Assembly (NCBI RefSeq): GCF_011075055.1
Contig: NC_058149.1
Location: 3,602,449 to 3,666,448 of the forward strand
Length of the DNA stretch: 64,000 nucleotides
DNA from: Mangifera indica
Taxonomy: Eukaryota; Streptophyta; Magnoliopsida; Sapindales; Anacardiaceae
Direction of reading: 5' to 3'
Every line of letters starts with the position of its first letter. Positions within the stretch are counted from its first letter, which is position 1. Positions 7,544 to 59,897 of this stretch are shown piece after piece. Position numbers and translations under genes: made by a program. A model generated the notes under the pieces. It searched no databases and was not told the origin of the DNA. It saw nothing but the letters and a program-made list of their open reading frames with translations.

Positions 7544-7854
7544 AATTAATATGGCCAAAGGACTATCCCCCCACCCCATAAGTTTAAATGCATTCTCAAA
7601 ATCACACTATGAGGTTTGAAAATTCAAAAATCTTATCTATCTGTTAAAAATCTCAGTTATAGTTAGGGACAAAATCATTATTTAATGAAAAATTTTAAAA
7701 ATCTAAAGTTTTATTACATTCCCCTCAGCTTGAAAATCTCACAATTCCCCTCACTTGAAGTTTGAAAAATCAAAATTTTCCGCCTAAGGCTTCCAAACCA
7801 TCTTTGAAAATGGTCGTCTCTGGTGGCATTGGCTCTTCCTCCCGGCTTAACTCT

Positions 7855-9789
7855 TGTAACACCCGAATTCAGGTATGCCAGTGAACTCTACTTCCAAAAT
7901 TACCCCTAGAGTTGATTTTATAACTTGTTATTTAAAGAAATTATAAATGAATTATAGAAAACTACTAAATGAGCAATAATTTTCAAAGGGGGTAAAATGG
8001 TCATTTTAGAAGGATTTAAGAGACAAAGTGGGAATTTAAATTGAATGGCACACTTGAAATTATATGGTGGTGCTAAGGGTTTTTGGTAATTGGTTAAGGA
8101 TAAAATAGTCATTTTTGGAAAAGGTTAAGGGTAAATTGGTTCTAAAAGCTTATAAAACCAACCAACTATTCATTTTCTTCTTCTTTAGCCGAGAATCTCC
8201 ATAATTTTTAGCTAAAGTTTTCCTTCAAGCAAAATTCATCAAAAAACCTAGCTAAACTACCTAATTTCCAAAGCCTCAAGTTATAAAAAATGTAGATCTA
8301 TCAATTCTGGTAAATTCTAAGATAAAAATTTTAATTTTTAAGAGATGTCAAGTTTAGGGTTTTGATGGATGATTATATTTTTTGTTGATTAAGGTTGCTA
8401 GGAAGAAGAAAAGAAAGAGGATAAGCTTAAATCACCTAATTAGCAAAGAAAATGTAAGAATTTCATACTTTACATACTTGAAGTAATTTGAGTTAGGTTA
8501 TTTAAATAACCTTTACTTGTATAAGTCAGTAAGGTATTAGAATTAAGGTGATTTATGCTTAAAAGGATAAAAAAATTCATTAGGATTCATGATGTAATTT
8601 TGGCCATAAGGGTATTTTAGACATTTCATATTCCTAGGGTTAGTTTAGTGGATTTTGTGTGTTGAATATATGAGAAATAATGAATTGATGAAAGAATTTG
8701 CATTAAGGGTAAGCATGTAATTTTATCCATAAGGTTAATTTTTGCTTAATTATGTGTATGATATGTAGAATAACCCTTATATCCATAAGGGCAAAATGTC
8801 ATTTTATGTGATGTAGGTTAATTTTGCTTAATTATGTGTATGATATGTGTAAAAAAACCATTATAATAAATATGTATATTCATATGGAATGCATGAGATA
8901 TATGTAAATGCATGAGAAAATAATCTAATGTTTGATGAGACTTGAAAAGAATAAGGAAAAACAATAAATGGGCATATTTCATATTATGGTTATACATGCA
9001 TACATGAGGAATCATAGCATATGCATAATTTCAGAAAAAATAAAGAAAGAGGAAAAACATTTTATAAGTTATGCATGTTTTCAGAAAATGGAAAACAAGT
9101 ATTTTTGGTTTTATAATGACTCATATGATATAGGAAAGTAGAAAGCATGCTTAAAATCCTTACACGCGAGCTGTACTGTATGGATAGCAAAGAAAAAAAA
9201 AATAGTGAAATATGCGTGTAAGAGAGAATTAACCCTTATATGGTGACTGCAAGTACTATCATATGTAGTATAGATTGGTCAATGAAAATATTTGAAAAAA
9301 AAAAGAAAGAGAGAGAAAGAATTAACAAATATTTTATAAAAGTCATTTGCATTAAAATCATGCATGCAAGCTTATGTGGCTGATAAATAGTTGGGAAAGA
9401 TGTACGATCAGAAAATAGAAAAGTCATGACACTCATACATGCATAAATCATAACAAGTGAATCATATTTGTATAGTAAAGAAATGAATACATGGGTGAAA
9501 GAAAATAATTATGATATGTGTTTAATGCATGTTCCGTGTCAATTATTTTATATGTGAATAGCCCAGACACGCTGAGTATGGAAGAGATTAGTACTAGTAT
9601 GAAATGCTTTGAGTGTTGAGTATGATTTTCTTACTGAGCCGTGGTTGCTCACTCCGTTTAATTTAATATTTTACAGGTAAAAAATTGCAGCAAAGGTTCC
9701 CGGGGAGCACTAGTGAGACATGAGGCTGAGGGAGGAAGGTACCATATTTTTGTTGATTTATATGTTTTGATGTATATGTGAATATGTGC

Positions 9790-9820
<31 letters not shown>

Positions 9821-10167
9821 TGATGTAGATATTGGTGGATATGTATATATTTTGTTTCCTATATGTATATATGTGATTGTGTATAGCTATATCTATATAT
9901 GTATATATATATATGGCTAGTTATGAAAATTGGTTATAAAATTTATGTGGGTGATAATTTTTATGATGGTTATTATTATGTACTTATTTTATTAATTGTG
10001 ATTAAGTTGATGAAAATTCAGTCAGTTGGTAGGACTGGTTTGTATGAATTGCTAATTGGGAGTGTTACAGGGCATAATTAAAAAGAAAAAATATTCTCCG
10101 GGCCCTCTAAAATAGGGGAACTCTTGCCGTTTTTCTATAACACACCTATTGGTTAGGAGAGGTTACA
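7855..10167 (+). mobile_element. Ty3/gypsy-type solo LTR nested in the TIR element
   Basis: A 2.3 kb sequence opening with TGTAACACCCG and closing with GGTTACA, flanked by a 5-bp duplication ACTCT at 7850-7854 and 10168-10172. The host element's own palindrome confirms the junction: its right arm contains the complement of the uninterrupted 'cttaactctccctgtc' sequence, which the left arm has only after the insert is removed. The interior has no pol motifs; the 'ttttacaggtaaaaaattgc' context near 9670 is LTR-like. No internal domain or second LTR was found, so a solo LTR from recombination is the simplest reading. A second 'gtgttaca' at about 10063-10070 could mark an older LTR end. Confidence 0.7.
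9789..9820. repeat. Compound (TA)n(CA)n microsatellite
   Basis: A run of alternating TA followed directly by CA dinucleotides inside the LTR, with more TA-rich sequence at 9845-9915. Simple-sequence repeat without coding meaning. Confidence 0.8.
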
Positions 10168-10685
10168 ACTCTCCCTGTCGATTACTTCCCAGCCACCAAT
10201 GAAGTCTATTTCCTTCGATGAAGAGGAAATTGTCTCTGTTGGAGTGTCTTCGTCTTAGACGAAGATGACTGTTAGAGGTTTCAAACGAAGATGATGTGGT
10301 TATATGAGACCTCTGACAATCGTCTTCATCAAAGGAAATAGACTTCGTCAGTGGCTGGAAAGTGATAGACAGGGAGAGTTAAGCTGGGAAGGAGAGTCAA
10401 CGCCATCGGAGACGATAAAGTTTGTCGTCTCCAACAACAGTTTGCAAAGCCTAAGGGGGAAATTTTAATTTTTCAAACTTTAGGTGTGGGGAATTGTGAG
10501 TTTTCAAGATAAGGGGGCCAAACGTAATAAACCTTTAGTTTTTTTGTTAAATGACAATTTTACCCTTAATCTTAACTAAAATTTTTAATGAATGAGTGAG
10601 ACTTTTAGATTTTCAAACCTTACAGATGTGACTTTGAGAATGCACTTAAACTTGGGTGGGAAATAGTCCTTTGGCCAATTAATAT

Positions 10686-11268: not shown

Positions 11269-11269
11269 A

Positions 11270-13497
11270 TAAGAGTGACTTACATTTTCTAGCCTTAATT
11301 GGTATAAATAACACTTTCTCACTCAAAATCAAATTTAATTAACACTTTCTCATCCAAATTTGAACTCTATTAATAACAATATTAAGAAGTAAAATTACTA
11401 TTTTATCCTTACTATTTCAATTTTCAAAATTATCATATAACTCTAAATTAATAAAAATTAAAAATAACGTTTTAAATTTCCAAATCATATAAGAAGTCTC
11501 TTGTTTTCTTTTCCTTTCATCCTCGCCCTTTCTTTCTCTCTTCCAATAGATAAGGGTATTTTTGTCATATAATCGTATATCAAGGGTCACACTTAAATTT
11601 TGAAAATATTAGGGGTCTTTAAAAATTTTTTTGGAAGTGAGTGAAAATTTGAAAAAAATTGGGGTCTTTCGAAAATTTAATAGTTTATTTGATCGGGTCG
11701 TGTTTGTGTTATATCAATTTAGGTTTTGGGTTAAAAACTCTTAATCCTAACCAGGCCTAAAATAAAATCGTGTCAAAATTTTTCAACCTTAACCTAACCT
11801 AAACTATATTCGGGTTGAGTTGATCCAATCCGAAATGATCTGAAATTGTCTAATGTTTCCACAAAGTGTTTTTAGCATTTTAATGTTTTTACTAAATTAC
11901 CTTCAATCCATAATTAACAATACATACAAAATAATATTTTGTCATGTTTACAAATGCTCTAAAAAATTTACATATCATAACCTTTAAACAACAAATAATC
12001 TTAATAATCAAATTGCATTCTCACTACCAAAAAATAAAATAAATTTTTTAAAGAGTAAATAATTTTTTTCCACCCAAGGTTTAGTTTAAAAACACTTTTC
12101 CACGCCTAGTTGGCATAAATAACACTCTCCCACCCAAAATCAAACTTCGTTTAAAAAGAAAACTAATGACACAAGGTTAAAATAGTAATTTTATCACCTA
12201 TTAATTTTGAGAAAAAAACAATTTTTATAGATCCAAATGTTTTAAGCATGACAATTTAATTATTAGGTTTAAAAACTCACTATTCAATCTTTGAAATATT
12301 TTTCAAGCCTCCATATATTTTAAAACTACCGTATGATCCCAATAATTATAATATGACATTTATACTCATAATTTGTTTTATTCCGTTTAATTTTTTGGGA
12401 GGTAATTATCACTTTCAAAACTATTAAAGGGCATTTGATATTTAAAAAATGTTCAAAAGACTTCAAACTTTTTTTGAATTTCTAATCACCCCATGCAAAG
12501 TTTTAAAAAGACCCCTATTTTAAAAAATTATATTTACCCTCTAACATATGATTATACGACAAAAACACCCTTATATGTATAAGAAGAAAGAAAGAAGGGG
12601 TGAGGGTGAAAAGAAAAGGAAATAAAAGGATTCTTATATTATTTAAATGTTTAAAATATTATTTTTTATTTATATTAATTTAGAGTTATATTATAATTTT
12701 AAAAAATGAAATAGTTGAGATAAAATGGTAATTTTACATTCTAATATTGTTGTTTCATTAATTTAGTTTTTTTTTTTTGGTGGGAAAATCTTACTTATGC
12801 TTGTTTTTGAGTGGAAAAATGTTATTTATGCCAACTAAGGGTGAAAAAGTATTTTAAGGTCAAACCTTAGGTAGGAAAATGTAATTTACTCTATTTAATA
12901 TAAAACTCAATAATAATCAAAATAATTACAACCTTATGAAATAAAATTATATACAATATGTAGGGATTTCAACCATTGTTGATACTGGTGCTTCAACATT
13001 TCTTGAATCTATCTATAACAAATTCTACTATAGTAAACTTTTCTCTGAAGATTCGTGTCAATTCAAATCGTGTCAAATTACTTTATTGTTAACTCTTACC
13101 CCAATCTAATTTAATTTTGAGTTGTATTGGGTTGACATGAATTAAATTTTGTGTCAAGAAATCTCAACCCTACCCTCGATTTTTTTTGTGTCCTATCGTA
13201 TCGAGTTAATGGGTAGTGTTGAATATTGTCAACTCTAATAAGTTTGCTTTTAATAGTTTCAATCATAACAGTTTCACCCCTAAATAATTGAATATAATGC
13301 AACAAAGATTTTTAAGGGTTAAATTGTAATATTTAAAACATTTTGGGTTAGATAAAAAGTTGTCCTTTTTATTTTAAGATTACCATTTTTCCCTTACACC
13401 ATTAGTTTTTTTAATAGAATTTAAATTTGAGTAGAAAAGTGTTATTTATACCAACTAAGTATAAAAAATTGTTTTTAAACCAAACCTTGGGTGATAA
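11270..13497. mobile_element. Outer TIR element of a nested pair (AGAG-ended family)
   Basis: The left end at about 11270 (AGAGTGACTTACATTTTC) and the right end at about 13497 are inverted copies. Both share 'ttggtataaataacactt' about 30-60 bp inside the terminus. Flanks ACTTATA and ATTTATA may be a decayed target duplication. The interior holds a second element of the same family (12053-12895) and GGGTCGTGTC-type sequence at 11690-11870 and 13030-13230 that resembles the ends of hAT-like repeats. No coding region is present. Boundaries are approximate. Confidence 0.5.
12053..12895. mobile_element. Inner AGAGTAAAT TIR element
   Basis: Starts AGAGTAAATAATTTTTTTCC and ends with the inverted AATGTAATTTACTCT. 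The inverted arms extend more than 100 bp and include 'aaggttta', 'tagttggcataaataaca' and their complements. The 'CCACCCAAGGTTT' word in the arms resembles the GGCCAAA family, so the two families may be distantly related. No target duplication could be confirmed. Confidence 0.6.
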
Positions 13498-14204
13498 CTC
13501 TATTTATAATAACTATCAATTTGGTACCAAAGATGATGCAACACTCTAATTGAGTGATTCCAAATTACAAATAAAATAATATTCAAATATATGATAACAT
13601 ATAATCATTGATAAGTCATTTTCCAGCGGGAACTTTCTTATATTTTTCCAACAAGTGCTTTGTTTTGGCCACAATTTTGAGAAATTTGTTGAACTTTTTA
13701 ATTTTTGAATTTTCACTAAAAAATTGAATAATTTTTTTTAATTTATGGATTAAAGTAAAAGTGAGAATAATATTACACGTACTGAATTTTTTAATAATTT
13801 ATCTATACAAACTAATGCATATTTAAGTCATTAAGTTATGGGAAATTATTAAATGCCCCATTCTTTCCCAAACTAAGCAAAGATGCCCAATTTTTCATCT
13901 CCTAAGGAAAAATGCCCCATTTTCAAAGTCTCAACCAAAAATCCCCAAAAACTTTTCAAAATGTTAAAACTACCCTTTACTACTTCTATATAAATTCTCA
14001 CTCTCATACCTTTCCACATCATTCAAACTCTCATTGTCACTTACATTTTTACTCAATATTTGATACGGTGGGTTCATTTGGAAGCAAAAAATTGTATTTC
14101 TAAATTCGAGTCGAAACAAATCAATTCATGAGAAAAAAAAGTATTTATACAAATCTTAACCCAAAACTTAATTTTATTTGTTAAATTAAGTTTGCATATT
14201 ATAA

Positions 14205-15010
14205 AGGGGGCAATTGGAAATACTTGAAATATATTAGGGGGTTAAATGAAATGTTAGAAAATATGAGGGCATTTTATTACTAAACAATGTATAAAGGTTT
14301 TAAATGAAATGTTAGGAAAATATAGGGATATGTTGATACAAGACAACATATGAAGGTATTAAATGAATTGCTAGATAAATATAGGGGGTTAAAAAAATGT
14401 TAAAAAATATGGGGACATTTTGATATTAAACCATTTATGACGGTTGTAAATGAAATATTAGTAAAATATAGGGGCATTTCAATAGAAGACAATATATGAG
14501 GGTGTTAAATAAAATGTTAGATAAATATAGGGGTTAAATAAAATATTAGAAAATATATGGGTATTTTGATATTAAACAATGTAAGAAGGTTTTAAACAAA
14601 ATGTTAGGACTATATAGAGACATTTTGATATAAGACAATACTTAAGGGTGTTCAATAAAATGTTAGTCAAATATAAGGGGTATTTTAAAGTTAGACAAAA
14701 TATTAGGATGCTAAAAAAATATGCAGACATAGAAAGGGCATTTTGATATTATAAGAATATCAAGTTCGTATATGTTATAAAATATAGGGTGTATTTTGAT
14801 ATTGTAAAATGTATTAGAGAGTAAAGAAATATTAGAAAAATATGGGGGTCATTTGGATATTAACCAATATAAGAAATGAACATTTTGGTTTTAGATAATG
14901 TATAAGAGTTTTTAATGAAATGTTGAGAACTAGAGATGGCATATTGATATTCGACCATATATAAGGGGATTAAATAAAATTTTAGAAAAATATAGTAGTC
15001 ATTTTGATAT
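14205..15010. repeat. Minisatellite 1 of MULE-A
   Basis: About a dozen degenerate units of roughly 60-65 bp, each containing variants of TTAAATGAAATGTTAGAAAA, TATAGGGG and CATTTTGATATTA. The inverse complement of the same unit is found at 27730-28090 in MULE-B, so the array was part of the ancestral element rather than a local expansion. Confidence 0.75.
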
Positions 15011-15489: not shown

Positions 15490-16750
15490 ATCAAAGTTGA
15501 TAAGAATTTCATAAAAAAGACATAAAATCAGAGACCAAAAAATGAATTTAAAATTCAAAAACTATACGTTAAAAAACCCTAAAATGAAAAAAATAAAAAA
15601 GGGACCTGAAATTCGAAAACCACACGCCTAATTCCCTTAGAATCACAAAAGCCCAACAACCAATTTAAAATTCAAAATCTATACATCGGATAACCCTAAA
15701 ATGATAAAAATAAAAAAACGTAATAAAAATTTGAAAACTATACATCAAAAACCCTGAAATGACAAACATTGAAAAACTGATCTGAAATTTCAAAACTACA
15801 CGTCCAATTACACAAGAATCAGAAAACCCAAAAATTGATTTGAAATTCAAAAATTACATATTGAAATACCCAAGTATGACAAGTATTGAAAAATTGACTT
15901 GAAAATTGAGAACATGTCCAAAAATCATAGAATAACAAACATTGAAAAAAAGACATAAAATTCGAAAGCCATATGGCGAAAAATCCTAAAATGACAATCA
16001 TAAAAAATGAATTAGAAGTTCAAAAACTACAAATCCAATTATCTTAGAATAACAAAAACCAAAAAATCGATATGAAATTTAAAAACTATACATTGAAAAC
16101 CCAAGTATGACCAATACCAAAAAATCAACTTCAAATTTGAAAATTATACATCGAAAAACCCTAAAATAACAAACATAAAAAAACGAACCTAAAATTTAAA
16201 GGCTACATGTTGAAAAACTCTAAAATGACAAATATTAAAAAATGAATTAGAAATTCGAAAACTAGAAGTCCAATTACCCTAGAATCAAAAAAATAGAAAA
16301 ATTAATCTAACATTTAAAAACTACATATCAAAAAACCCAAGTATGATAAATACCAAAAACTAACCTAAAATTTAAAAATTACACGTCAAAAAATCCTAAA
16401 ATAATAAAAACTGAAAAACTGACCTAAAATTTGAAAACAACATGTCCAAAAATTATAAAATGACACACATAAAGAAAACGAACCTGAAATTCGAAAACTA
16501 CATATTGAAAAATCCTAAAACGAAAAATATCAAAAAATGGACCGAAAATTTGAAAATTACATATCCAATTACCCTAAAATGACAAATACCAAAAAACTGA
16601 TTTAAAATTTGAAAACTACATATCAAAAACCTTAGAAATCACAAAAATTGAAAAGCAAATCTAAAATCAAAAAACTATATGTCGTAAAACCCTAAAATGT
16701 GAAAAAAAAAAAACATAAGCAAAATTTGAAAGCTATGTGTCACAAAGCCC
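15490..16750. repeat. Minisatellite 2 of MULE-A
   Basis: About twenty degenerate units of 60-66 bp, built from AAAAACTACACGTC, AAAAACCCTAAAATGACAAA and a GACCTGAAATTCG-like word. The complement of the same unit (TAGGGTTTT...GTAGTTTTCGAATTTCAT) recurs at 25845-26460 in MULE-B. The embedded AAACCCTAAA is part of a longer unit and does not form a telomeric tandem array. Confidence 0.78.
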
Positions 16751-17754
16751 TAGATTTAGATAAAATATCAATTTGTCTCCTTAACATTTTCTCATTCTCC
16801 CACAAATCCTAAATGTTTAGAATTATTAAGTAGCCCCCTTATCAATTTATTTCTCTCCCATAAGTCTAAAATGTTTAAAAACTCTCAATTTGCCTCGGGG
16901 GTCCCACAAGTATCATTGTTTAAAAATTCAACATTTCTCCCCTACCTCATGGTTCCCCCATGCTCCTCCATGGGTGACTATTCCAAAACTTGCAAATTTC
17001 CCTCCCCCGAGGTTTCCTCAATAGATCATCTGATGTAACTACTATTTAAAAAATCGCATTTACCCCTTTCCTTATGTTGTCGATTCAACCCAGGGATATT
17101 TCTCAGACCCGGGATTCCACGGGTTTGCAACTATCCCCCAGGGTGAAATTCCAACTTCAAAATGGGTCAATTTTTTAACCAAAATTACAATTTTTGGCTA
17201 CCATTTTAATAACAAAAGATTGTACACCTAATTAACCATAATAGCTCTAAACTAATTCATCCAAAACAACTAAAAATCAAACCACAAAATCAATTGTTCA
17301 AATCTAAAAACTCTAAACTAAAAATACCCTAAATCTTACTCTAATCTATCAAATCTAAACATAAAAATGATTCAAACAAGATAAGGGACGATTAACTCAC
17401 CTTCTTCATCATTTTCATCATTGGAAAAAGTCAAAAATTCAGTCCAAAAGTCGAAAAATCCATCGCTTGTGGAAATTTTCTTTTGTACACAGTTAAGCGA
17501 TGAAAATATGGATGAGAATATGAAATTTTTTGGATTTATATATGAGGGCATTTCAATCATTTCAATAAAGGAGGCATTTGTGCTTCAGTCCAAAAAAAGG
17601 GGACAATTTTTTTAAACCCTTGATGTTTAGGATAATTAATTTAATATCCCTTAATTTATCTAATAATATACTAATCTTTAATTGAAAATCAATTAATTAT
17701 AGCAGTTAATATGAATAAATTAGTAAGTGTATTATTATTTGTAAGGCCAAACCC

Positions 17755-18361
17755 AATGTTTGATGAGACAATAATTGCCTCCTTTAGGTTTCAAAAAATC
17801 AAATTCCCTCGTCGTCCACTTCTGTTAATAAATCTATCTGGTTTTTCTACAAATGATTATTTTGCCTTATAATTTAAATTATAAAATTGTTGTTAAAATT
17901 TAATATAAACGTTAAATTACTAATACATAATAATTTAACATTTTATCACTTAGACTTCTAAAATATGAAATCTAACCAATTTTAAAATATTGCACTTTAG
18001 TCTGTTCTTTAGGGTGTAACTGTCATATTTTAAAATATTGAGTGGGTTATTAAATTTAAAAAAATAAAAAACATTCATTAACATTCTTGACATTTTTTGA
18101 AGTTGCAGTTTTATCCTCAAACTTTTGAAAAAGGAAGTAGGCAAAAATGAAGGGAAAAAATAAAAATAGAAGGGGGACAGAGAAAATTCAAAAAAATAAG
18201 AAGATAAAAAGAAAATAGAAAAAATTGTACAAAATAACCTTCAAATCTTTTCATTTAATGAAATTCACTAACGAATATGAATGATGAGTGGAAATCTAAC
18301 TTTTTCAAACTTAGAGAGTACAAAATTGTCATTTCATCAAACCTTCAGTGGGAAATACACA
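17755..18361. mobile_element. Truncated GGCCAAA-family TIR element
   Basis: Begins with GGCCAAACCCAATGTTTGATG and ends with 'catcaaaccttcagtgggaaat', the usual inner part of the right terminus, but the final 'agtcatttggcc' is missing. The interior shares words with the copies at 21133 and 19017 ('tctggtttttctacaaatg', 'cttttagactt'-type sequence). Probably a copy whose right end was lost to later rearrangement. Confidence 0.45.
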
Positions 18362-18399
18362 AGTCAAGAGGGCTCCCCATTTTTTGACACAACTTGCGA

Positions 18400-19016: not shown

Positions 19017-20076
19017 AGCCAAATAATATTTTCACCTTTTAAATTTGAAAAAGTCAATTTTTGATCTATTTGTTAAAAATAATGTTTTAGTTTTAACGAT
19101 CAAAGGGTATTTACGTCATTTTGTCTAAATATTATCATGTGGAGTGTGAATATCATTTTTCAAAACTTACTAGGGGAAAATAGTATTTCCCTATTTTGTT
19201 TAAGAAATTATCATATTTAGCTCATATTTTTTAAAAATATATTTATAGTCCTAATAATTTTAATATAACATTTACATTTCTAGTTTGTTATATTTTATCC
19301 ATTTCTTTTGGGTTGTAGTAGTAATATTTAAAATAGCTAAGAGTAATTAAAATTTAAAATTTTTAAAAACACCCTAAAAGTTTTTAGAATTTTTGAAAAC
19401 CCCCTTAAAATTTTCATTATCACCCCTAAAATTAAAAAAATTTAACTTACTCCAAATATATAATTATATGTCATTGACACCCTATCTACACTTGAACTTG
19501 TAATTTTTTATTTTTAATTGAAATTAATATACATTAGGGGTATAAAGATTATTTAATAAGCTTTGGGGGTACATTCATAGTTATGAAATCCTATGGTACA
19601 ATATGCTACAAGTGAAAAATGATACATATCATAACATGTATCAAATTAATAGAATACTGTAAACATATCATACAATACGATACTATCCTATGATATAATA
19701 CATATTACTGATATAATCAATGCACTTTTTGGAGAAAATGAGATGTAATAGGGGTGTATATGAAAAATTTTTAATTTTCATAGGTGTTTATAATATTTTT
19801 CAAAATGATGATGATGTGTCAAGTAATATTTTAGTATATTATTTTTTAAAAGGCATATCCTATAATACGATACCATACATGATATGAAAAATTTGATTTT
19901 CAATATACCACACAATTCATGTCAACTACCATGGGCACAATGTTATTTAGTTAGAGGGCATTTTTGTCTTTAAATATTTTATAAAAAAGATTAACAAATT
20001 TAAAAGATGGGTGAGAAATTCACTTTTTCAAATCTATTAATTCATCAAACCTAAGGTGGAAAATAGTTATTTGGCC
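19017..20076. mobile_element. GGCCAAA-family TIR element (copy 2)
   Basis: Left end AGCCAAATAATATTTTC and right end GAAAATAGTTATTTGGCC are inverted copies. Flanking 9-mers TATTTTTTA (19008-19016) and TATTATTTA (20077-20085) match at 8 of 9 positions. The interior has short inverted arms and a core shared with the elements at 21133 and 12053. No coding potential. Its right-hand duplication abuts that of the next element. Confidence 0.7.
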
Positions 20077-20092
20077 TATTATTTATTATTTA

Positions 20093-20828
20093 GGCCAAAA
20101 GACTTATTCTTACCCAAGGTTTACTCTATTTTCAAACTCCCACCTGTAAGATTCAAAAACCTAAATACTCATCGATAGACTATTAAAGTTAACAAAATTT
20201 ATTAGTTTTAGAAGTAAAATTGTTATTTAATTAGTGATACTAAAAGTAATAAAACTCTATCTCATTTTCCCCTCTAAACCATAAAAACTAACAATTTTCT
20301 CTTAGATTAAACTTTGAAAAGTTTGGATTTCCCCCACTAGGGTTTCAATTTTGCAGGGAATTTTCCAACGAACAACCAACTTCTTCGGCACTCTCTATTC
20401 CTCCCAACGATATTCCTCCCTTTTTGACAACTTGAAAGTTGCTCTCTCATAACATGATTTGTCTAGAATTGTTGAAGATGATTCGTCTTTGTCCAAATGA
20501 AGACGAGTCTAGAAGAAGGGAAAGAAAGGGTTGGAAGGTGTCAACTATTGGAGAGGGAGAGGTTTTATCGAAGAATTGAAACTTTAGGGAAAATGTAACT
20601 TTTTAAAACTTAATCCTAAGAGAAATTATAGTTTTTCTAAACCAAAGAGAGAAAATAATATACATTTTTATATTTTTTAATATAACCAGTTAAATGATGA
20701 TTTTACTCTTAAAATTAACAAATTTTGTTAACTTTAATAGCCTATAAGTGGGTATTTGGGTTTTTTAAAACTTTGCGGGTGAGAGTTGGGGAGTAAACTA
20801 AACTTGGGTGGGAATAAGTCTTTTGGCC
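20093..20828. mobile_element. GGCCAAA-family TIR element (copy 3)
   Basis: 736 bp from GGCCAAAAGACTTATTC to GAATAAGTCTTTTGGCC, flanked by a perfect 9-bp duplication TATTATTTA (20084-20092 and 20829-20837). The arms are nearly complementary through the element, with GACGAG/CTCGTC-like words in the centre. The exact duplication and well-matched termini suggest this is one of the younger copies. Confidence 0.85.
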
Positions 20829-21132: not shown

Positions 21133-21727
21133 GGCCAAATCACTATGTCCCACGCAAGGATTGATAAAAGGCCCTTTAAGTTAAAAAAAAAAAAATCAAA
21201 TTTTCATGTTATTGACTTTTATTAATTAATTCTGTTTGGTTTTTCTGAAAATGCCATTTTATAGATTTTAAGAAACTATTATTAATACTTAATATTAATA
21301 TCAAATTACCAGTATATCCTTAGCCATTTAGAAAATTCACTTAGACTTCTAAGAGCCAATTTTAGAATATTGTGTTTTGTTAAGTTTTTAGGCATGTAAC
21401 TATCAATTTTCAAACTATTAAGGGGTATATTAAAATTTTAAAATTTAAGAAACACCCTAAAAATTTTCAAAATTTGAAAACCCCATTATAAATTTTCATT
21501 AATGCCTCTAACTTTTTTAAAAATTATAGTTCACCACAAACATACATAGTTTTGAAAAAATAAAATAAAATAGAAACTTTTATGCAAAATGACTTTTCAA
21601 CTCGTTCACTTGACATAATTTACTAATGGAAATGAATAATGAATAGAAATTTGGCTTTTTTAAGCTTAAACATAAAGCTGAAAATTAATCATTTTAGCAA
21701 ACCTTGGGTGGGCAATGTCTTTAGGCC
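21133..21727. mobile_element. GGCCAAA-family TIR element (copy 4)
   Basis: 595 bp from GGCCAAATCACTATGTCCCACG to CTTGGGTGGGCAATGTCTTTAGGCC (written here as the two ends only). Flanking 9-mers CTGATCAGA and ATTATCACA match at 6 of 9 positions, so the duplication is decayed. The interior shares 'ggtttttctgaaaatgccat' and 'aacaccctaaaaattttc' words with other copies of the subgroup. Confidence 0.62.
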
Positions 21728-22074
21728 ATTATCACATTATGAAATCGTTCTTGCCTGTCCCTGCTAAATACAGGGTTTCATACTATTGGTAATGGAATTT
21801 CAAAATAAAATTATACTAAAACTACTATCTTGACCATTTTTTAATTCAATGATATTCTCCTACTTGTTTTAAAAATTATCATATTCATCTCATATATTTT
21901 GAAAATATTTAATAGCCCCAATAATTTGCACCTCAGTTCAGTTCTTTAGGAGTATAAGTATCATTTTTGAAACTATCAAGGGTCATACTGAGTTGTTTTA
22001 ATTTTCAAAAAACCCAAAATTTTTATTGAATTTCTAAAACCCCAAAAATTCTTCACCACAAACATTTCCAAAAA

Positions 22075-22970
22075 GGCCAAAGGACTATTTCTCACCCAAG
22101 TTTTGATGCAACTACAAATACATACCCATAGGGTTTTAGAAACCCAAATACCCACCTATGAGCCAATTTTCGTTAAAAATTTCAGTTATGGTGAAGGGTA
22201 AAATTTTCATTTTATAATAATATTAAAAAATTATATAATTAATTATATTTTCCCCCAGATTTTAAAAACTAACAACTTCACCTTTGTCAAAAGTTTTCTA
22301 ACTTTAAAAAGTCACATTTCCCTCCCAAACCTAGGGATTCATCTTTTTCCCATTTTAGCCGCTGCCCACACCTTTGAAAACTTCAATTTAACCCCCTCTT
22401 CAACTTTAGATTACTCCGATGACCTCTCCCTCTATTGATTGAGCCGATGTTTACCTTTGCTTTTCTTCGATGCTTGAGCTAGCCTCGGATGATGACGTGG
22501 TGCAATTTCTGGGAGATGGCTGGATATTCTTCGCTTGACGAAGAGACGATCTTTTTGTCTTTTTGTTAGATGAAGAGATCTAGAGATCTATGCCTATGCC
22601 TCTTTGCCACCAGCTAACCATTTCAACGATGAGAGATGGTCAGTCGAACAGAGGAAAAAGGAGGAGTTTTCGAAGATGGGTGGTGGTTGGAGAGGGGTGA
22701 AAAAAAAACCAGGAGTGGGGGGAAATAGACACTTTTCAAAACTGGAAATATTTAGGTAGGGGTAAAATTGTTAGTTTCTCAAATCTCGGAAAAAATAAGA
22801 TAAAATTATAAATTTTTAAATATTATTGTTAAAATGACAACTTTATTTTTAACCATAACAAAAAATTTTAAAAGAAATTAGTCTATATGTGGGTATTTTG
22901 AGTTTTTGAAACCCCACAGGTTTGTATTTGTCTTTTCATTTAAATTTGGCTTTGAAATAGTCCTTTGGCC
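22075..22970. mobile_element. GGCCAAA-family TIR element (copy 5), nested in a relative
   Basis: 896 bp from GGCCAAAGGACTATTTC to GAAATAGTCCTTTGGCC, flanked by a perfect 9-bp duplication TTCCAAAAA (22066-22074 and 22971-22979). The sequences on both sides (21840-22070 and 22980-23254) join into the core typical of the copy-4 subgroup and end at 23254 with AGTTGTTTGGCC. So this copy inserted into an older member of its own family. The central part carries CTTCGCTTGACGAAG-like palindromic words. No coding region. Confidence 0.83.
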
Positions 22971-23254
22971 TTCCAAAAATTACAGTGCACCCCAAACATG
23001 CGATTATACATTAATGACAATCCTTATTTATGTTTGTGTTATTAAATTTTTTGTTATTTTTAATTGAAATTAATATACATTGGTGGTAAGAATTATTTAA
23101 TAAAATTTTTGGAATAAGTCTAACTTAGTTGGAGGGTTATTTGTTTTTTCAACAATTTTATGCAAACTTTTAATATATTTTTGGAAAAACGACTTTTCCG
23201 GGCTGGTGGAAATGTCACCGCATCAAACCTTGGGTGGAAAATAGTTGTTTGGCC

Positions 23255-24072: not shown

Positions 24073-24953
24073 GGCCAAATGACTATTTCCCGCCCAAGGT
24101 TTGATGCAAACCCAACTTTCCACTTGCTAACAATCGAAAATAAAAACTCTCACCCATTAATTAAATTTTACTGTTACTATCAGGGGTAAAATTGTTATTT
24201 AAAAATTTTGTTTAAACTCATATTTTTTATTATTCCTAAGTTTTTAAATTTTTATTTTTACCCCCTAAAGTCGTATTTTCCAAAGTTTAAAAAATCACTT
24301 TTTCTCCCCAAGTCTAGGGTTGCAAACTTTTTCTCATATACTATACAATTGAACCCAACTTCCTTTCTCCTTCTCTCCGGTGATGATTCATAGGAGACGA
24401 TAGTTGAATCTCTTCCTTCTCTCTTCCCTCTCCCTCTCGGTCACCCTTTCTTTGCTATTTGACCATCTTTGTCTTTGTTTGGGATGAAGACAATTTCATC
24501 TTCGTCAACGAAGATAATTTCATTTTCGTCTCTGATGAAGATAGTCGAATAGCGAAGGGAGGGTGACCGGGAGGGAGAGGGAAGGGAGGAGGAAGATATT
24601 TGACTACCGTATCAGTGAGTAGTCATCGGAGAGAAGTAGAAAGGAAGTTGGGTTCAATTATAACTTTCTAAAACGTTGGGGGTGGTTGATATGGGAAAAC
24701 GTTTTCAACCCTAGACTTGGGGGAAAAAAGTGAGTTATTAAACATCAAAAATATGAGTTTAGGGGGTAAAAATAAAATTTTGAAAACTTAGAAATAATAA
24801 AAGGCATGAGTTTAAATAAAAATCTTAAATGACAATTTTACCCTAAATAGTAACAATGAAATTTAACTAACGGGTGAAAGTTTGGATTTTCGATAATTAA
24901 TAGGTGAGAAGTGGGTTTGCATAAAACCTTTAGTGGGAAATAGTCATTTGGCC
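24073..24953. mobile_element. GGCCAAA-family TIR element (copy 6)
   Basis: 881 bp from GGCCAAATGACTATTTCCC to GGGAAATAGTCATTTGGCC. Flanking 9-mers TCTCTAAAA (24064-24072) and TATCTAAAA (24954-24962) match at 8 of 9. The element is close to a perfect palindrome: 'ctccctctcggtcaccctttctttgctat' on the left arm faces its complement on the right arm around 24550-24590, with 'catcttcgtcaacgaagat' at the centre. The open frame at 24208-24393 lies in one arm and is not a gene. Confidence 0.82.
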
Positions 24954-44287: not shown

Positions 44288-44887
44288 GGCCAAAAGTTTA
44301 TTTCTCACCTAAAGTTTAATGCAAAGACAAATACAAATATATGAAATTTCAAAAACTCAAACACTCATCCACCACATAATTTTTGTTAAAACTTGTTGTT
44401 AACTATAAAGGTAAAATTATCATTTAACTAATAATATTAAAAAACTAAAAATCTATATTATTCTCCCTTTATAGTTAAAAAACTAACAATTCCCCTTACC
44501 AAAAAGTTTGAAAAGTTACATTTTTCCCTTAGGGTTTCATTTCTTCCTTTTCTTCTCTGGCAATGTTCTCTGATCAATCTCCTATTTGTCGACTCTTTCT
44601 TTCGCATCCCAGGTAATGACATGACCATCATTCTCCAACCACGAAGGTGATGAATCATCCAGATCTATCGGTCAACAAATATGTTTCTTCCTACCATCTT
44701 TGTTACATTCATGGAAAAATGATGTAAATTTTTAATATTTAGTGATAAAATGACAATTTTATCCTTGCATCTAACAAAAAAAATTCTAACATAAGTTAAC
44801 CTATGAGTAGTTGTTTGGGTTTTTGAAACCTCATGAGTGAGTATTTGTCTTTGCATTGAATCTTGGGTGGGAAACAATTTTTTGGCC
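44288..44887. mobile_element. GGCCAAA-family TIR element (copy 7)
   Basis: 600 bp from GGCCAAAAGTTTATTTCTC to GGGAAACAATTTTTTGGCC (end shown as terminus only). Flanks ATTCTAAAA (44279-44287) and CTTTTAAAA-like sequence at the right match at 7 of 9 with one base of slippage. It abuts the 5' side of the CSN1 pseudogene. The minus-strand open frames at 44458-44658 and 44665-44877 lie inside the element and are not genes. Confidence 0.72.
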
Positions 44888-45141: not shown

Positions 45142-48100
45142 TGTTAAATAAAATATTTATTTTATTATTTTATGTGTATATTAATTTTATTTATTTACTA
45201 GTATTATGAATCCTTATATAATTCATTTTCTTATTCATATTTAGACTGTCTTGTAATATTATAAATTATACTTCATTTTATCAATAATATTTATTTAGTT
45301 TTACAACCCCAATTTGAAATTTTTCATGGTATCAAAGTAGTAAAAATCCTCCTGTATTTTTTCAACTCTAAAATTTATTTATTTTATTTTATTATTATTT
45401 TTTTTTTTAGCCTTGGAAAGTTGTAATCCCCCTTGTGCACTTTTCTAGGGTTTTGTTATTGCACTTTGGAAAATTCTCTTTACCCGTCTATATTTTTCTT
45501 ACTTTCAATCACCACCCTTAGCTTTTGCAATCTTCTTCATAGTTGTTGCCCCCTTTTTGGTTACCTATCTATCAAAGCCAAGTCGTCATTAGCCTAGCAT
45601 CTATCTCTAACAAAGTTTGCTCCTATCTGGTATGAATGCAATGTCTTTTTTCTCCTTGCCTTGAGTTACCATCGAGTGTGCCTTCTCTCAATTTTGTCAA
45701 TTTCTTCACCGAGATCAAGCAAGTGTTGTGTGCCTTCATTTTTTGGTGCTGTGACAACATTTTTTGTCATCGTTGTTTGCTTGTTCTGGTCATTTTCTTC
45801 ATGCATGATTCACTTTTGTTGCACATTTTTCCTCTGCTACCAAGCTTTATCCACTGATGTCTTCTCTATGGCTCACTCTAAGACAACTCTAGTCACCATC
45901 CCTCCCAACACTCTAACCCCCTCACCTAGGTTTCCTTACTGGTAGCCTCTTTTCCTACCATGTATCATGGTTTACCAATCACTACTGTTTCTTCATCTTT
46001 GTTCCTACTAACTTCTCTATCGATTGCTACTATTTTTGCTAATTTGACATTTACTTTCTTAATGTCCTTACTACCTACAACGATAAACATTAGGAGTTAT
46101 CTTTCTTCTGTTATGGTTTTCAATACTTATCGCACATGAAAGTCAATATTTCTTGATGTGTTTGCTATTTATGATTTACAACATTTGATTGTTGTTAATG
46201 CATGACCTCTACCACCACTTTTTGATGGCATTTCTAATCCAACTTATTCTTACTGGTTATGCATTGATAAATTGGTTTGGACCTAGATTAAATCCACGAT
46301 ATTGCCCGCACTTGTTCAATCTTTATTGCTACCTTATTTTACTACTTTTAAAGTATGGTCCTTGCTTGATCTTCATCTGAATTCAATTTTTGGGATCCAC
46401 CTTTGGTTTATTCGTGACAAGCTACACACTCTTAAAAAGAACTTTAGATCAGTCAATGGTAAATTATCTTATTAATGCCAAGTCCATCTTTGATTCTCTT
46501 ACTACAATTGATTTTCCTATTCCAAATGTTGATTTTGTAGAGTACGTTATTGATGCTTTAGGTCTCAAGTACTAATCTTTCATTACTTCCTTGCATTTTT
46601 GCCTATCCACTACATTTGATAAACTCTATCATATTCTCGTTTGTGAAAAGAGTTTTTAGAAGAAACTCCTTAATATGTCTCTTCCAACTGTTGTTATAGT
46701 TGTTACTCGATCCTCCCCTTAGTCTTTGAATTTATCCAAGTTTTCTAGCAAACATAACTTTCGTAGTCATAATAAACGTGGTCACGGTAATCGTGGACAA
46801 TATATTTCTCACCAACAATCTTTACCCTCATATCAACCTTCTTTGCTTCTTATTCCTACAGGTGTTCTTCCTCAATGTACTAATCATATTTGCAATAAAC
46901 ATAGGCACTCTGTTTGTGTTTGCCTATAATAGGAAAATTTTACCTATATAGTCGATTTCGTGACTACTCCTCTTGCAACTATGTTTGTGTGTGATCCTTC
47001 TAATTCAAATTAGGTTCTAGACTCTGGTGCTACACATCATATGACACCTAATGCTTCAATCCTTTCTTCTCCTTACCATCTCACAGGTATATCTTCTATG
47101 ATTGTTGGAAATGTTCATTTATTGTCAATGTTTGTTTGTCTAAACCTTCTCACTCTCCAGTTATTCTATATGATGTTTTGTGTGTTCTATCATTACAAAA
47201 ACATTTGTTGTCAATTCATAAGTTTACCTCTGACACTAATTTTTTTTGTCTTTTTGATTCATTTAATTTTGTGATTAAAGACATAGACAGGTCAAATCTT
47301 TCTTTTTAGTAACAACAATAATAGTTTATATCAATTGACTCCTCTTATCATTATCGTCCATTCATTTGTTTTGTGTCTCATCTGATGTGTAGCATTGTCA
47401 TCTTAGTAATCCATTTTCCATAATGCTCATTATTTTTGCCTCTATGTCTGATCGAGTTCATCCTTTGTAGGATCTCCCATCTGTTTGTCCAGTTTATCCT
47501 CTTCATAAAAGTCATCACCTTCTTTTTACCAAATGTACTTACATTGTTTGCAGTCCTTTCAAGCTTCTTCACCTTGATGTCTGTGGTCCTGCTCCTGTCC
47601 CATCATTGTCATCATTTTGTTATTGTTTATCTATTATTGATGATTTTAGTTTGTATACATAACTATATCTTGTGTTTAGAAAATCTGATGTTATTGTTGT
47701 TTTTTACTAAATTTAAATTAATAGTGGAGATACTTCTTTCTTATTCTATTCAAATTATTTGTTTGGATGGTGGTGATGAATTTAATAACAAATTATTTTG
47801 TTCCTTCCTTGAGTCATGTGGTATTATGCATCAACTGTCTTATCCTTATACTTCTGCCTAAAATGGTATGTTAAAAGAAACATCAAGACATAATGGAAAA
47901 AGGATGTTGTCTTTTATTACAGGCTAACCTATCCTTGCTATTCGAGTGAAGGCTTTCTTTACTGTTATGTTTTTTATTAATAAGTTGCCCACACAATTGC
48001 TCAAGAATAAAAATCCCTTTGATGTTTTGCTTTGACATCCTCGAAACTATGGATCTTTACATACCTTTGGTTATGCTTGTTATCCTTTGCTTACCTCGAC

Positions 48101-50790: not shown

Positions 50791-50798
50791 AAGACATA

Positions 50799-54475: not shown

Positions 54476-54489
54476 CCTTGGGGAATAAA

Positions 54490-56105: not shown

Positions 56106-57416
56106 AATCACAACACCTAACTTGTCTTTAGTTGTAAATAAGTCAAGTCAATTTTTGAAGGTTCCCACACAATTGCAATGAGAAGTTTGTAAAAGAGTTC
56201 TAAGGTATATTAGGGGAACCTTGCAGTTTGGAATAATGTTTAAAGCAACTTTAATTTTTCAGTTCAAAGCTTATGTTGATGTTAATTGGGCTAATACTAT
56301 ATGAGATTAAAGATCCACTGGTGGCTGTTGTGTATTTGTTAGATAGAATTTGATTCAATGGACTTCAAGAAAGCATAAAGTAGTTGTTTTATTATTTACT
56401 AGATTTGAATACAGGGCATTGAGTCGGGTTTCTACTAAAATATCTTGGTTGAACAATCTATTTTCTGAAATACAACATCATTGTCTCAAACATACTATTA
56501 GTTGGTGTGATAACGAGGGAGATGCTTCCTTAGCGTCAAATTCTATTTTTCATGGTAAACATAACAGAAATTGATGTGCATTTCATAAAGGAACAAGTTA
56601 ACATAAAACAATACTTTCTACGCAATATGCGCCTTTCAAATTTCAAGTTGCAGGTGTGCTCACTAAACCATTTTCACTTGCAAGATTTGAGATGTTAAGA
56701 TCCAAATTAAATGTGATGTCTACTGTTCCTTTGAAAGTTAGTGAAAAAGAAGTTAACAAGGAATCAAATTAGTTTCAAGCTACTTATGTTGTATAGTTTG
56801 TGTTTGATGATGATCTGTTGCTGAGCAAGTTGTTCTTGACTTGCTCTGTGTAAATTGGTGATGATGTTTGAAAAGAAACTTGGAGGATTATTGATTTTCA
56901 TAGATTGTGTGAGGATGATTTTATGACAGTGCAAATTGTTCTTGACTTGTTTTTTGCGAACTAGTGATGATGCTTGAAAAGAAGTTGTTCTTGACCTATT
57001 CTTTGCATACGAGTGACGATTCTTGAAAAGAAGCCAAGAGGACTAATGAGTTCATAATTTTTGAGTTTTCTATTTTTTGTTCTTCGTCGAGGCAAACTGG
57101 CGTATTAATCTTCTGGTGAATGATTCCTGAGAGTGTTGATGTATTAAATCTTTCTGGATACGCTGATGATTTTGGTTTTTGCCATATAGGAGTTGAACTA
57201 GCGATTTTGTTTTGTTTCTAATGTTATGCGTTGCTATGGTAATACTTCTAGTGATTAACTTTTGGAAGTGTTGCCTTGATTTTATGGTTCCAAGCAGGAG
57301 GATACTTTTGTTAATGTATTTTTACAGGTTTGTGTTTAATCATTCTTCTTTCAAGTTGAAAGAAATAGATTGAATTTATTTTTTTTTTCTTGAGGGAGGA
57401 TAAGAAGAATGGAGAC

Positions 57417-57825
57417 TGTTATGTGGACGCAAAACTCACAAAAGGTTGCACATGAAGTAGACCCTGTTAAAGGAGAAGATATATGTGAAGTTTTGGTGGA
57501 AGCAAGAAACGGTGCATTTGAGACTATGGCGTATTAAGGAAGAATCATCTGACGGTGGATATTAGCAGCCGATGTGTTTCCTTGTGAATAATCGAATGGT
57601 TATTTTTGTTCTCCCTTCGGTTGCCAACCTGGCTTTCTACTAGATATAAAAACTCTAATTTTTCTCACTGTTAAGTTGAATCGATTTTATTGAATTGAAA
57701 TTAAAAAAAAAATTTCTCGTTTTTTCTTTTTTGATTGAATGTTAGGAAGTTATATCGATTTTATTGAATTGAAATAAAAAACAAATTTCTCGTTTTTTAT
57801 TTCTTGATTAAATGTTAGGGTTACA
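57417..57825 (+). repeat. 3' LTR of the interrupted copia element
   Basis: Begins TGTTATGTGGACGC directly after a purine-rich tract and ends GGGTTACA. Near its end is a tandem duplication (57677-57820) of about 73 bp with ATCGATTTTATTGAATTGAA and TTTCTCGTTTTTT in each copy. No 5' partner was found, so the LTR end is inferred from the TG...CA pattern. Confidence 0.55.
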
Positions 57826-57899
57826 ATTTTGGGTAAAATTTGTCAATATTTACTCAGTAAATCCATAAACCTAAAAGACCAACATTAAAGTTGCATGAA

Positions 57900-58910
57900 C
57901 CAAGATAAACAATCAAAAAGCTTGGGCATATTAATTAAAATAGGCAAAAAAATTGTCATCTAAACATTTTTATGCCGTTACTTTTATAAACAAATTTATT
58001 TTGTATTCCAATAATATTTTTTTCCTTTAGTATATCTTCCCTTTAGCCATGTTCTTTCTCAACTCAACCAACGATGGTACACTCTAGCACAACATCATCA
58101 TATTGAATATAAAATAGTTTGATAACTTATATCACAATAAATCGAAACTTTCATTAAAAACTTGTTGTGGAAACTTTGATGAATAAAAGTTTAAAACTTT
58201 AAATGCTAATTTCTGAAGTTTGAATATTGATATTTGAGAAAGGTTTGATTTTGTTTACTTATGTAGTTACTTATTACATTAGTTGTATAGATAGTGAATA
58301 TCTATTATATTAGTGAAAGTAAAACAAGGTTTGATGTCAGATCACAACAGAAAGCAAAAACGAGATTTTCTGGAAATCGAGTATGCCATGCATGCACTCG
58401 CACTCACACTCGCATTTCGCGCTTGTTTTCTAGAAAATCATGTTTATGCTTTCTATTCTAATCTGACATAAGAACTTGTTCTATGTTGACTAATAAAACA
58501 GATATTTACTGTCTACACAACTAATGCAATTGACAACTAAACAAATAAACAAAATCAAACCTCTCCCAGAAATCAATATTCAAAGTTTTAAACTTTTATA
58601 TGTGGAAGTTTTCACAATAAGTTTTCAACGAAAGTTTTGACTTATTATGATATAAGTTATCAAACTATCTTATATTCAATATGATAATGTACTGTTGGAG
58701 TATAACATTGTCGACTAGGTCGAGAAAGAACAAGGTTGATGGGAAGGTATACTAAAGGAAAGGGTATTATTAGAATAAATGATGAATTTGCTTAGAAAAA
58801 TAACTACATCAAAAGTTTGCCTATAAACGTTTAAGCAGAAATATTTTTTGCTTATTTAATTAATAGCCCAAAAGTTTGAAATGCTACAAATATTAATTTC
58901 TTTAAAGCTA
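57900..58910. repeat. Long inverted repeat, about 1 kb, arms of about 470 bp
   Basis: Left arm about 57900-58377, loop about 58379-58425, right arm about 58426-58910. The arms pair end to end with roughly 75-80% identity by eye: for example 'catattgaatataaaatagtttgataacttatatca' is matched by its complement near 58645-58685, and 'aaaagtttaaaac' and 'aggtttgattttgttta' likewise. The loop holds GC-richer 'actcgcactcacactcgc'. No coding region. Probably a foldback or long-TIR transposon; no target duplication was found. If transcribed it would form a long hairpin RNA. Confidence 0.78.
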
Positions 58911-59069
58911 ACCAATCCCAGTCAAAGCAAGTTCTTCTAATTTATTGTTGTTAGTTGCAACACGAACTTTGTAAAAGGTTATCTGAATTTAAGAAGAAGA
59001 AATTTGAAAAATAAATTTCAAGAAGAGTAGTGGTGGTAGCAAAGGATTAGGTTAGGTAGGGTTTGCAAA

Positions 59070-59897
59070 GGCCAAAAGACTTACTCCCACCCAAGGTTTA
59101 GTGCAAACCCAAACTCATACCTAATAATTTTCAAAAACTTAAATGTCCATCTGTTTGTTAAAATTTGTTGTTACTATCAGGGGTAAAATTGTTAGTTAGC
59201 AAAATATTTTTAAAAAATCTAAAATTTATCACTTCCTCCTCCTAAGGTTTAAAAATCTAACAATTTCTACCCAACCCAAAATTTGAAAAATTAACATTTT
59301 CCTTTAGGGTTTTTCCAACCACCATTGTAGGCGACGTTTTCCTCTCTCTTGACTTCTCTCTCAATCTTGTTCCATTCTTGGACGAAGACGTGTTCTCCAA
59401 ACAAAACTGCTCTATTTTCGATGTTCTTCAGATGAAGACATGATTTATCTTCAGCTCTCAAATGAATACGACTCATCATCCTTGTCTGAGATGAAGACGT
59501 TTCATGTCTTCGTCTAGAGAACACAAGGAATGAAGCAGTCTTCGTCTAGAGAATACGTGTTCATCCGAGAATGGGGGGGGGGGATTGAGAGTGAAACCGA
59601 GAGGGAGGGAGAACGTCGTCTTTGTCTCTGACCACCGACAATGGTGGCTAAAAAAACCCTAGGGGAAAATGTTAACTTTTCAAACTTTAGATTAGAGGGA
59701 ATTTATTAGATTTTTAAACCTAAAAGGAGGGGAGAATGTGATAAATTTTAGGTTTTTTTAAATGTTTTTATTAACTAACAATTTTACCCTTGAAGTAACA
59801 GCAAATTTAATAGACAGATGAGTATTTAAGTTTTCAAAAGTTAACAAATATGAGTTTGGGTTACACTAAACTTTGGTTGGGAATATGTGTTTTGGTC
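59070..59897. mobile_element. GGCCAAA-family TIR element (copy 8)
   Basis: 828 bp from GGCCAAAAGACTTACTCCC to GGGAATATGTGTTTTGGTC (terminal base change). Flanks GTTTGCAAA (59061-59069) and TTTTGCAAA (59898-59906) match at 8 of 9. The arms carry GACGAAGACGTG and CGTCTTCGTCTAG words in inverted order, plus a run of ten G at about 59574. The minus-strand open frame 59291-59524 lies across the palindrome and is not a gene. Confidence 0.8.

What the first reader, a model, noticed from the sequence alone, without database searches (positions are those of the whole stretch)
7553..59897. A GGCCAAA-ended TIR family with 9-bp duplications, at least eight copies in 52 kb
Elements at 7553, 19017, 20093, 21133, 22075, 24073, 44288 and 59070 share the terminus GGCCAAANGACT followed by an ACCCAAGGTTT word. 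They are 0.6-1.1 kb long and mostly palindromic. Six have 9-bp flanking duplications that are perfect or 8 of 9: AATTAATAT, TATTATTTA, TTCCAAAAA, T(C/A)TCTAAAA, (G/T)TTTGCAAA, TATT(T/A)TTTA. Several carry central CTTCGTC/GACGAAG palindromes. The size, arms and duplication length indicate a Mutator-related MITE family that has been very active near these XTH genes. I cannot name a described family for it.
Basis: partly seen in the sequence, partly recalled or inferred. Interest (0 to 1): 0.75.

Follow-up and report, generated by a model that had tools for sequence, protein, structure and literature searches.

The report
Abundant plant fold-back MITE family
These are short, mostly palindromic jumping-DNA copies of a Mutator-like family that occurs thousands of times across this plant's genome and duplicates nine bases where it lands; it is a new, very abundant member of a well-known kind.

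Summary
Eight elements lie at the stated coordinates, and all six quoted duplications are there as written. Flank agreement over the eight pairs is 63 of 72 positions at length 9, against 25-48% at lengths 4-8 and 10-14.

Corrections: (1) six of the eight are fold-back elements (type A). 19017 and 21133, a degenerate copy at 17745 and the host around 22075 (type B) share the outer tip with A but have another body. (2) The 7553 element is 3.1 kb because a 2.3-kb solo-LTR-like insert with a 5-bp duplication sits in an 806-bp fold-back. (3) 22075 is inserted in a type B element; the rejoined site is collinear with two relatives, so its 9 bp are a true target duplication. (4) Duplications at 21133 and 44288 are weak (6 of 9).

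Genome-wide (391 Mb): 9,563 terminus matches with at most one mismatch, reversed-pattern control 0. Outside the window 7 of 11 independent pairs match at 8-9 of 9. The family is genome-wide, not an XTH-linked burst.

No transposase partner was found at seven MULE loci. Best reading: a non-autonomous, FARE1-like Mutator MITE family.

The parts
7553..10676 (.). E1, type A fold-back MITE; TSD AATTAATAT at 7544-7552 and 10677-10685 (9/9); interrupted by an LTR-like insert; 806 bp without it
7855..10167 (.). 2,313-bp TGTAACACCC...GGTTACA insert inside E1, 5-bp duplication ACTCT on both sides; solo-LTR-like by its terminal letters (not part of the MITE)
   Evidence: six-frame Pfam scan of E1 empty at E 0.1
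17745..18369 (.). E2, degenerate type B element, 63% identical to E5 over 577 columns; no duplication found; ends approximate
19017..20076 (.). E3, type B element, TSD TATTTTTTA / TATTATTTA (8/9)
20093..20828 (.). E4, type A fold-back, TSD TATTATTTA (9/9); 16 bp from E3, its left duplication overlapping E3's right duplication by 2 bp
21133..21727 (.). E5, type B element, flanks match only 6/9
21848..22074 (.). H6, left half of the type B element that hosts E6 (aligned part; its left terminus was not recognised)
22075..22970 (.). E6, type A fold-back nested in H6, TSD TTCCAAAAA (9/9)
22971..23254 (.). H6, right half with its own GGCCAAACAACT right end at 23254
24073..24953 (.). E8, type A fold-back, 76% self-complementary over its length, TSD TCTCTAAAA / TATCTAAAA (8/9)
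44288..44887 (.). E9, decayed type A fold-back, flanks 6/9
59070..59897 (.). E10, type A fold-back, TSD GTTTGCAAA / TTTTGCAAA (8/9)
11273..13499 (.). Cousin (type C): GAGT-tipped element(s), flanks TACTTATAA / TATTTATAA 8/9 (found by trying end offsets of up to 3 bp), with a second pair of GAGTAAA ends inside (about 12053 and 12893, no duplication found) and a type B body at 12271-12572
   Evidence: end coordinates approximate

Best explanation
A high-copy family of non-autonomous Mutator-like (MULE) MITEs. Type A elements are about 0.6-1.0 kb and consist of two long inverted arms with little or no loop in the best-preserved copies; type B elements carry much the same tip on another body. Shown: shared tips, 9-bp target duplications in the window and elsewhere, one nested insertion whose empty site can be rebuilt, and about 9,600 terminus matches genome-wide. 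Inferred: a MULE transposase encoded elsewhere binds the GGCCAAANGACTATTTCCCACCCAAGG tip in trans, cuts the element out and inserts it with a 9-bp stagger into A/T-rich sites; A and B are moved by the same or a closely related enzyme because they share the tip. The window copies are divergent members; the genome also holds many copies with one identical 27-base tip.
For: 9-bp length specificity: 63/72 positions agree at k=9, 25-48% at lengths 4-8 and 10-14; permutation 9 of 100,000. Empty-site test of E6: with one TTCCAAAAA copy the host aligns collinearly to E3 (66% over 398 columns) and to E5 (70% over 167) across the junction. Copies outside the window: 13 inward pairs listed, two being duplicates of two others; of the 11 independent ones 7 have 8-9 of 9 matches, 5 at the predicted ends and 2 after shifting one end by 1 bp; chance of 8 or more with the freedom of shifts allowed 0.010. 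Genome count 4,745 + 4,818 terminus matches with at most one mismatch, 0 + 0 in the reversed-pattern control. In the 100 places listed there (all on one contig, 0-7 Mb, exact) 24 neighbouring pairs under 5 kb face inward, 22 of them 480-945 bp apart, against 1 outward pair under 5 kb. Fold-back structure: self-complement alignment 58-76% over full length in six type A elements, far above shuffles. Literature: 9 bp is usual for Mutator-like elements (PMC4334395, passages); in a survey of 207 plant genomes Mutator makes up 41.5% of MITEs (PMC12550479, abstract and passages).
Against: No transposase partner: at seven MULE loci (three of a family with frames of about 605 aa, one 707-aa, one 709-aa, two FAR1-type; 25 kb read at one, 6.2-7.5 kb at the other six) no pair of family ends encloses the transposase frame as one element. 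E5 and E9 have weak duplications (6/9), as have 4 of 11 independent pairs elsewhere (6-7/9). Type B shares only its tips strongly with type A, so one common enzyme is inferred. No repeat library was available, so the family may already have a name.
Confidence: 0.9

Rival explanations
1. The tips belong to another superfamily with duplications near this length (hAT 8 bp, Merlin 8-9 bp, P 7-8 bp; lengths recalled), not to Mutator.
For: No transposase was linked, and structure alone cannot name the superfamily. PMC3169594 notes that fold-back shape occurs with different transposases (passage).
Against: Agreement peaks sharply at 9 and is 0.48 at 8 and 0.41 at 10; long arms are typical of TIR-MULEs; mudrA-type MULEs are plentiful in this genome.
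Confidence: 0.07
2. Types A, B and C are separate families that share a tip by convergence or by a very old split, and use different transposases.
For: A and B bodies differ; in 200 kb of sampled genome the B body has 1 match while A arms have 27; C tips begin GAGTAAA.
Against: The outer 33-35 bp of B ends match A ends at 82-89%, and some B ends show weaker similarity to A arms (60-68% over roughly 90-210 columns); the B element E3 has a 9-bp duplication like A; a B-type body lies inside type C.
Confidence: 0.2
3. The duplications and pairs are chance matches in A/T-rich DNA.
For: Flanks are A/T-rich; two window pairs and four outside pairs match only 6-7 of 9.
Against: Length and register specificity, permutation test, empty-site alignment and independent copies.
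Confidence: 0.01

Closest known systems
FARE1, fold-back MULE of Arabidopsis (Windsor and Waddell 2000; paper not held; described from recall and from citing passages in PMC4486113 and PMC3169594)
   Same: About 1 kb, made almost wholly of long inverted repeats, 9-bp duplications (recalled); classed with MULEs (passage in PMC4486113)
   Different: FARE arms are modular and its tips imperfect palindromes (recalled). Here no direct repeats were found within the first halves of four elements, and the tips form no consistent hairpin. [quoted passage not shown] no partner was found here.
MuTAnT of Medicago truncatula (PMC4486113, passages read)
   Same: Non-autonomous fold-back MULE MITEs, 9-nt duplications, tips starting with G
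   Different: 218 copies, 90% of them 200-300 bp, targeting (TA)n; TIR mask GGGGTTTGCTAGAACA; an autonomous Jittery-like partner is known
Tm1 Mutator/Foldback family of root-knot nematodes (PMC3169594, abstract and passages read)
   Same: Fold-back repeats, mostly 9-bp duplications, mostly MITE-like copies
   Different: Composite repeats built of 13-15 bp tandem units; nematode; a Phantom-type transposase is known
CitMule of Citrus (PMC4334395, passages read)
   Same: Probably the same plant order (Sapindales), 9-bp A/T-rich duplications
   Different: 6.9-kb element encoding a FAR1/MULE protein, with short degenerate tip repeats and no long inverted repeats

Membership tests
Mutator-like element (MULE) superfamily | Target duplication of 8-11, mostly 9, bp | tested here: met
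   63/72 at k=9 for eight window elements; 7 of 11 independent pairs outside at 8-9 of 9
Mutator-like element (MULE) superfamily | Long terminal inverted repeats (over 100 bp) in the TIR-MULE class | tested here: met
   Type A arms align over about 250 bp; type B elements do not show them
Mutator-like element (MULE) superfamily | Autonomous member encoding a MULE transposase between the same ends | tested here: inconclusive
   Seven MULE loci read; none enclosed by these ends; only 150 of 1,545 first-look PF10551 candidates were scored
MITE | Short, non-coding, high copy, inverted repeats, target duplication | tested here: met
   Inward spacing mostly 0.6-0.95 kb, 9,563 termini, no Pfam match in six frames of E1 at E 0.1. 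E6, E8 and E10 were only looked at for open frames (longest inside about 85 aa); the other members were not checked for coding
FARE-type fold-back MULE | Element made almost entirely of the two inverted arms | tested here: met
   Six type A elements, self-complement 58-76% over full length; type B elements are outside this
FARE-type fold-back MULE | Modular, internally repeated arms (recalled) | tested here: not met
   No direct repeat at E 0.01 within the first halves of E4, E6, E8, E10
FARE-type fold-back MULE | Imperfect palindrome at the tip itself (recalled) | tested here: inconclusive
   RNA folds of the outer 60 bases of 16 ends differ from end to end, -1.0 to -10.0 kcal/mol
Pack-MULE | Captured host gene fragment between the ends | not tested
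   Only E1 was scanned against Pfam; the host gene set was not available

The most novel reading that the evidence does not exclude
The two arms of a fold-back element evolve together: inside each lineage the palindrome is re-made from one arm (for example by template switching or gap repair through a hairpin), so an element's arms are sisters, although the family is old and the arms drift apart between such events. One transposase would also serve fold-back and other elements that share strongly only about 35 bp.
Probability: 0.3. Interest if true: 0.5.

Novelty: new member of a known kind. Interest (0 to 1): 0.3.

Why it matters
Thousands of hairpin-like elements in a 391-Mb genome are a large source of insertions and of possible double-stranded RNA, and a useful marker set for this plant. 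The sister-arm pattern and the nested insertions make it a good test case for how fold-back MITEs form and renew their palindromes. As a kind of element it is not new.

Tried and rejected
Transposase inside the 3.1-kb E1: rejected; the extra length is an LTR-like insert with a 5-bp duplication, and no Pfam match in six frames at E 0.1.

Selection for a hairpin RNA on one strand: G-U-compatible changes between arms 181 against 156 on the other strand, no element significant (smallest P 0.086). A fold of E8 is extreme on both strands (-507 and -456 kcal/mol against shuffle means of -203 and -188), but that only restates the palindrome.

Dating by comparing arms with duplications: arms differ by 25.5%, duplications by 5 of 54 (P 0.0025), but against the transversion-only rate (9.0%) the gap vanishes (P 0.64), so methylation decay may explain it; not used as evidence.

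Known family by text: terminus letters in the open-access library gave nine papers, none on a transposon by title; the one plant paper opened holds a potato primer. Looser combinations gave none or listings without a description of this family. No repeat library could be searched. FARE paper not held. Other listings used for background only; PMC3310237 seen as abstract and one passage, PMC8547701 and PMC2955051 as passages.

Rfam and tRNA scans of the window: no match.

Other collections: one terminus pattern each in viral contigs and genome contigs, 0 matches. A spurious frame from E10 as protein query: no homologue.

Partner hunt: seven MULE loci (L029, L030, L031: one family, frames of about 605 aa; L032, 707 aa; L037, 709 aa; L033 and L034, FAR1-type). 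L030, L031, L032, L034 and L037 show no family end above 6 bits; L033 has two right ends as neighbours; the 25 kb around L029 hold two complete copies and one more right end, each copy closed with its own nearer partner.
Full report
What the window is. Pfam finds the catalytic (GH16) and C-terminal domains of xyloglucan endotransglucosylase/hydrolase in frames at 6.4-6.9 kb and 29.7-30.9 kb. The closest proteins to the last exon of the second gene are from Pistacia (88-89% identity) and Mangifera (85-88%), so the plant is probably a member of Sapindales near Anacardiaceae; this is an inference. The window is G000:C13:3602449-3666448 of a 391-Mb, 241-contig genome.

Check of the observation. 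All eight left ends and all six quoted duplications are present. GGCCAAANGACT is exact at five of eight left ends; the rest are one mismatch, two mismatches, and degenerate (19017). A profile of 14 ends scores its members at 28-67 bits and finds three more ends at 29.1 (18357), 21.9 (21727) and 32.1 bits (59895), with further hits of 6.9-16 bits inside or near known members and type C; the reversed window and ten Markov shuffles give at most 8.5 bits. Agreement between flanks over the eight pairs is 63 of 72 positions at length 9, and 25-48% at lengths 4-8 and 10-14; sliding one flank by one base drops it from 63 to 29-32; re-pairing ends at random reaches 63 in 9 of 100,000 trials. Against: 21133 and 44288 match only 6 of 9.

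Two kinds of element. Self-complement alignment gives for type A: E1 without its insert 72%, E4 64%, E6 62%, E8 76%, E9 58%, E10 73% over full length, with scores far above ten shuffles each; for type B: E2 52%, E3 55%, E5 58%, scores modestly above their shuffles, and the E6 host 48%, no better than its shuffles. E5 and E9 have the same percentage, so the split rests mainly on sequence relatedness: A elements share about 250 bp of arm with each other, B elements share a body (E2 and E5 63% over 577 columns; E3 and E5 65% over 304). A and B share the outer 33-35 bp strongly (82-89%), and some B ends have weaker similarity to A arms (60-68% over roughly 90-210 columns). A B-body profile finds further copies at 12271-12572 and 11552-11681 (231 and 40 bits; best control 11.6), inside a GAGT-tipped cousin whose flanks match 8 of 9. 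So 'mostly palindromic' fits six of the eight listed elements.

The long first element. E1 measures 3,124 bp. From 7855 to 10167 it carries a TGTAACACCC...GGTTACA segment with ACTCT on both sides; without it E1 is an 806-bp fold-back, 71% self-complementary over 843 columns. It is therefore an ordinary member hit by what looks like a solo LTR; a six-frame Pfam scan found no coding domain at E 0.1.

A nested insertion shows the duplication. E6 lies within a type B element whose recognised halves are 21848-22074 and 22971-23254; its left terminus was not found. With one TTCCAAAAA kept, the rejoined host aligns through the junction to E3 (66% over 398 columns) and E5 (70% over 167). The 9 bp therefore arose by insertion.

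Genome-wide. The terminus pattern with at most one mismatch occurs 4,745 + 4,818 times; the pattern read backwards occurs 0 times. The 100 places listed, all exact and on one contig, contain 24 inward neighbours under 5 kb, 22 of them 480-945 bp apart and two near 1.8 kb, and 1 outward neighbour; by my eye count 44 of the 100 have the same 27-base tip GGCCAAACGACTATTTCCCACCCAAGG, whose C at position 8 is absent from the nine exact GGCCAAANGACT termini of the window. In 20 evenly spaced 10-kb stretches from five contigs the end profile scores 20 bits or more 14 times (7 of 20 stretches; reversed sample at most 5.7 bits), against 17 in the 64-kb window, whose ends trained the profile; the arm profile hits 27 times at E 0.001 in 10 of 20 stretches and never in the reversed sample, the B body once. 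Fourteen in 200 kb would mean roughly 27,000 ends in the genome, a rough figure. Outside the window, 13 inward pairs were examined (eight loci chosen by a terminus pattern, twenty by position); two are duplicates of two others, leaving 11, of which 7 match at 8-9 of 9 (5 at the predicted ends, 2 after a 1-bp shift) and 4 at 6-7 of 9. A further pair at L002 matches 9 of 9 after a 1-bp shift but did not meet the arm rule and is not counted.

How it most likely works. A MULE transposase made elsewhere recognises the shared tip and inserts the element with a 9-bp stagger into A/T-rich DNA. Shown: tips, duplications, nested insertion, copy number. Inferred: the enzyme, its superfamily and shared use by A, B and C. 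The genome has many MULE genes (150 of 1,545 first-look candidates scored for PF10551; 150 of 1,040 for PF03108). Seven loci were read: three of a mudrA-type family with frames of about 605 aa, one 707-aa and one 709-aa locus, and two FAR1-type loci (Pfam domains checked for five of the seven). None is enclosed by the family's ends as one element; nearby family copies are complete or one-sided neighbours. At six of the seven only 6.2-7.5 kb was read, so ends farther out would have been missed. The partner is unknown.

Arms as sisters. In the tree of six window elements the two arms of an element are sisters for five of six (support 74-100; E9 not), and identity is 62-84% within against 54-70% between elements. 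With shorter arms (130, 170, 210 bp) the result holds for E1, E4, E8 and E10 (support 77-100), while E6 and E9 are weak or lost. With seven more elements, arms are sisters in 12 of 13 (support 48-100; E4 not), and the own arm is the closest by plain identity in 9 of 13. This fits lineages in which the palindrome was renewed after the family split, but old, separate lineages would give a similar picture; it is a lead.

Activity near XTH. Seven of ten element starts lie within 6.4 kb (7 of 20,000 uniform simulations reach this), between the two XTH genes. But the family is widespread in this genome, window copies are strongly diverged, and nested insertion itself causes clustering. I see no evidence for a special link to XTH.

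Known or new. Fold-back MULE MITEs with 9-bp duplications are known (FARE1, partly recalled; MuTAnT; Tm1), and Mutator MITEs are the largest class in a survey of plants (41.5%). Text searches of the open-access library for the terminus found no description, but no repeat library could be searched, so the family may already have an entry. I file it as a new member of a known kind.

Noticed in passing
window 14235-14681 and 15534-16735: Two degenerate minisatellite arrays with a 59-bp period (and multiples) and opposite GC skew, side by side; only weak inverted similarity between the regions around them.
   Followed up: partly
window 20077-20092: E3 and E4 are 16 bp apart: two insertions into TATTATTTATTATTTA, their 9-bp targets overlapping by 2 bp.
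   Followed up: partly
window 47424-47861: Open frame ending LDGGDEFNNKLFCSFLESCGIMHQLSYPYTSA, which looks by eye like a retrotransposon integrase fragment; no Pfam match at E 0.1.
   Followed up: no
L029, L030, L031, L035, L036: An abundant, apparently recently amplified large mudrA-type MULE (frame about 605 aa; L029 is 96% identical to L030 and to L031 over about 6.6 kb), with 360-bp repeats in inverted orientation far from the gene and no obvious terminal inverted repeat.
   Followed up: partly
L005 and L006: Two loci 64 kb apart on contig C5 carry the same two neighbouring family elements with the same duplications, so a segment holding both was probably duplicated.
   Followed up: no
window 11273-13499: GAGTAAA-tipped cousin elements, apparently one inside another, sharing a body with type B.
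   Followed up: partly
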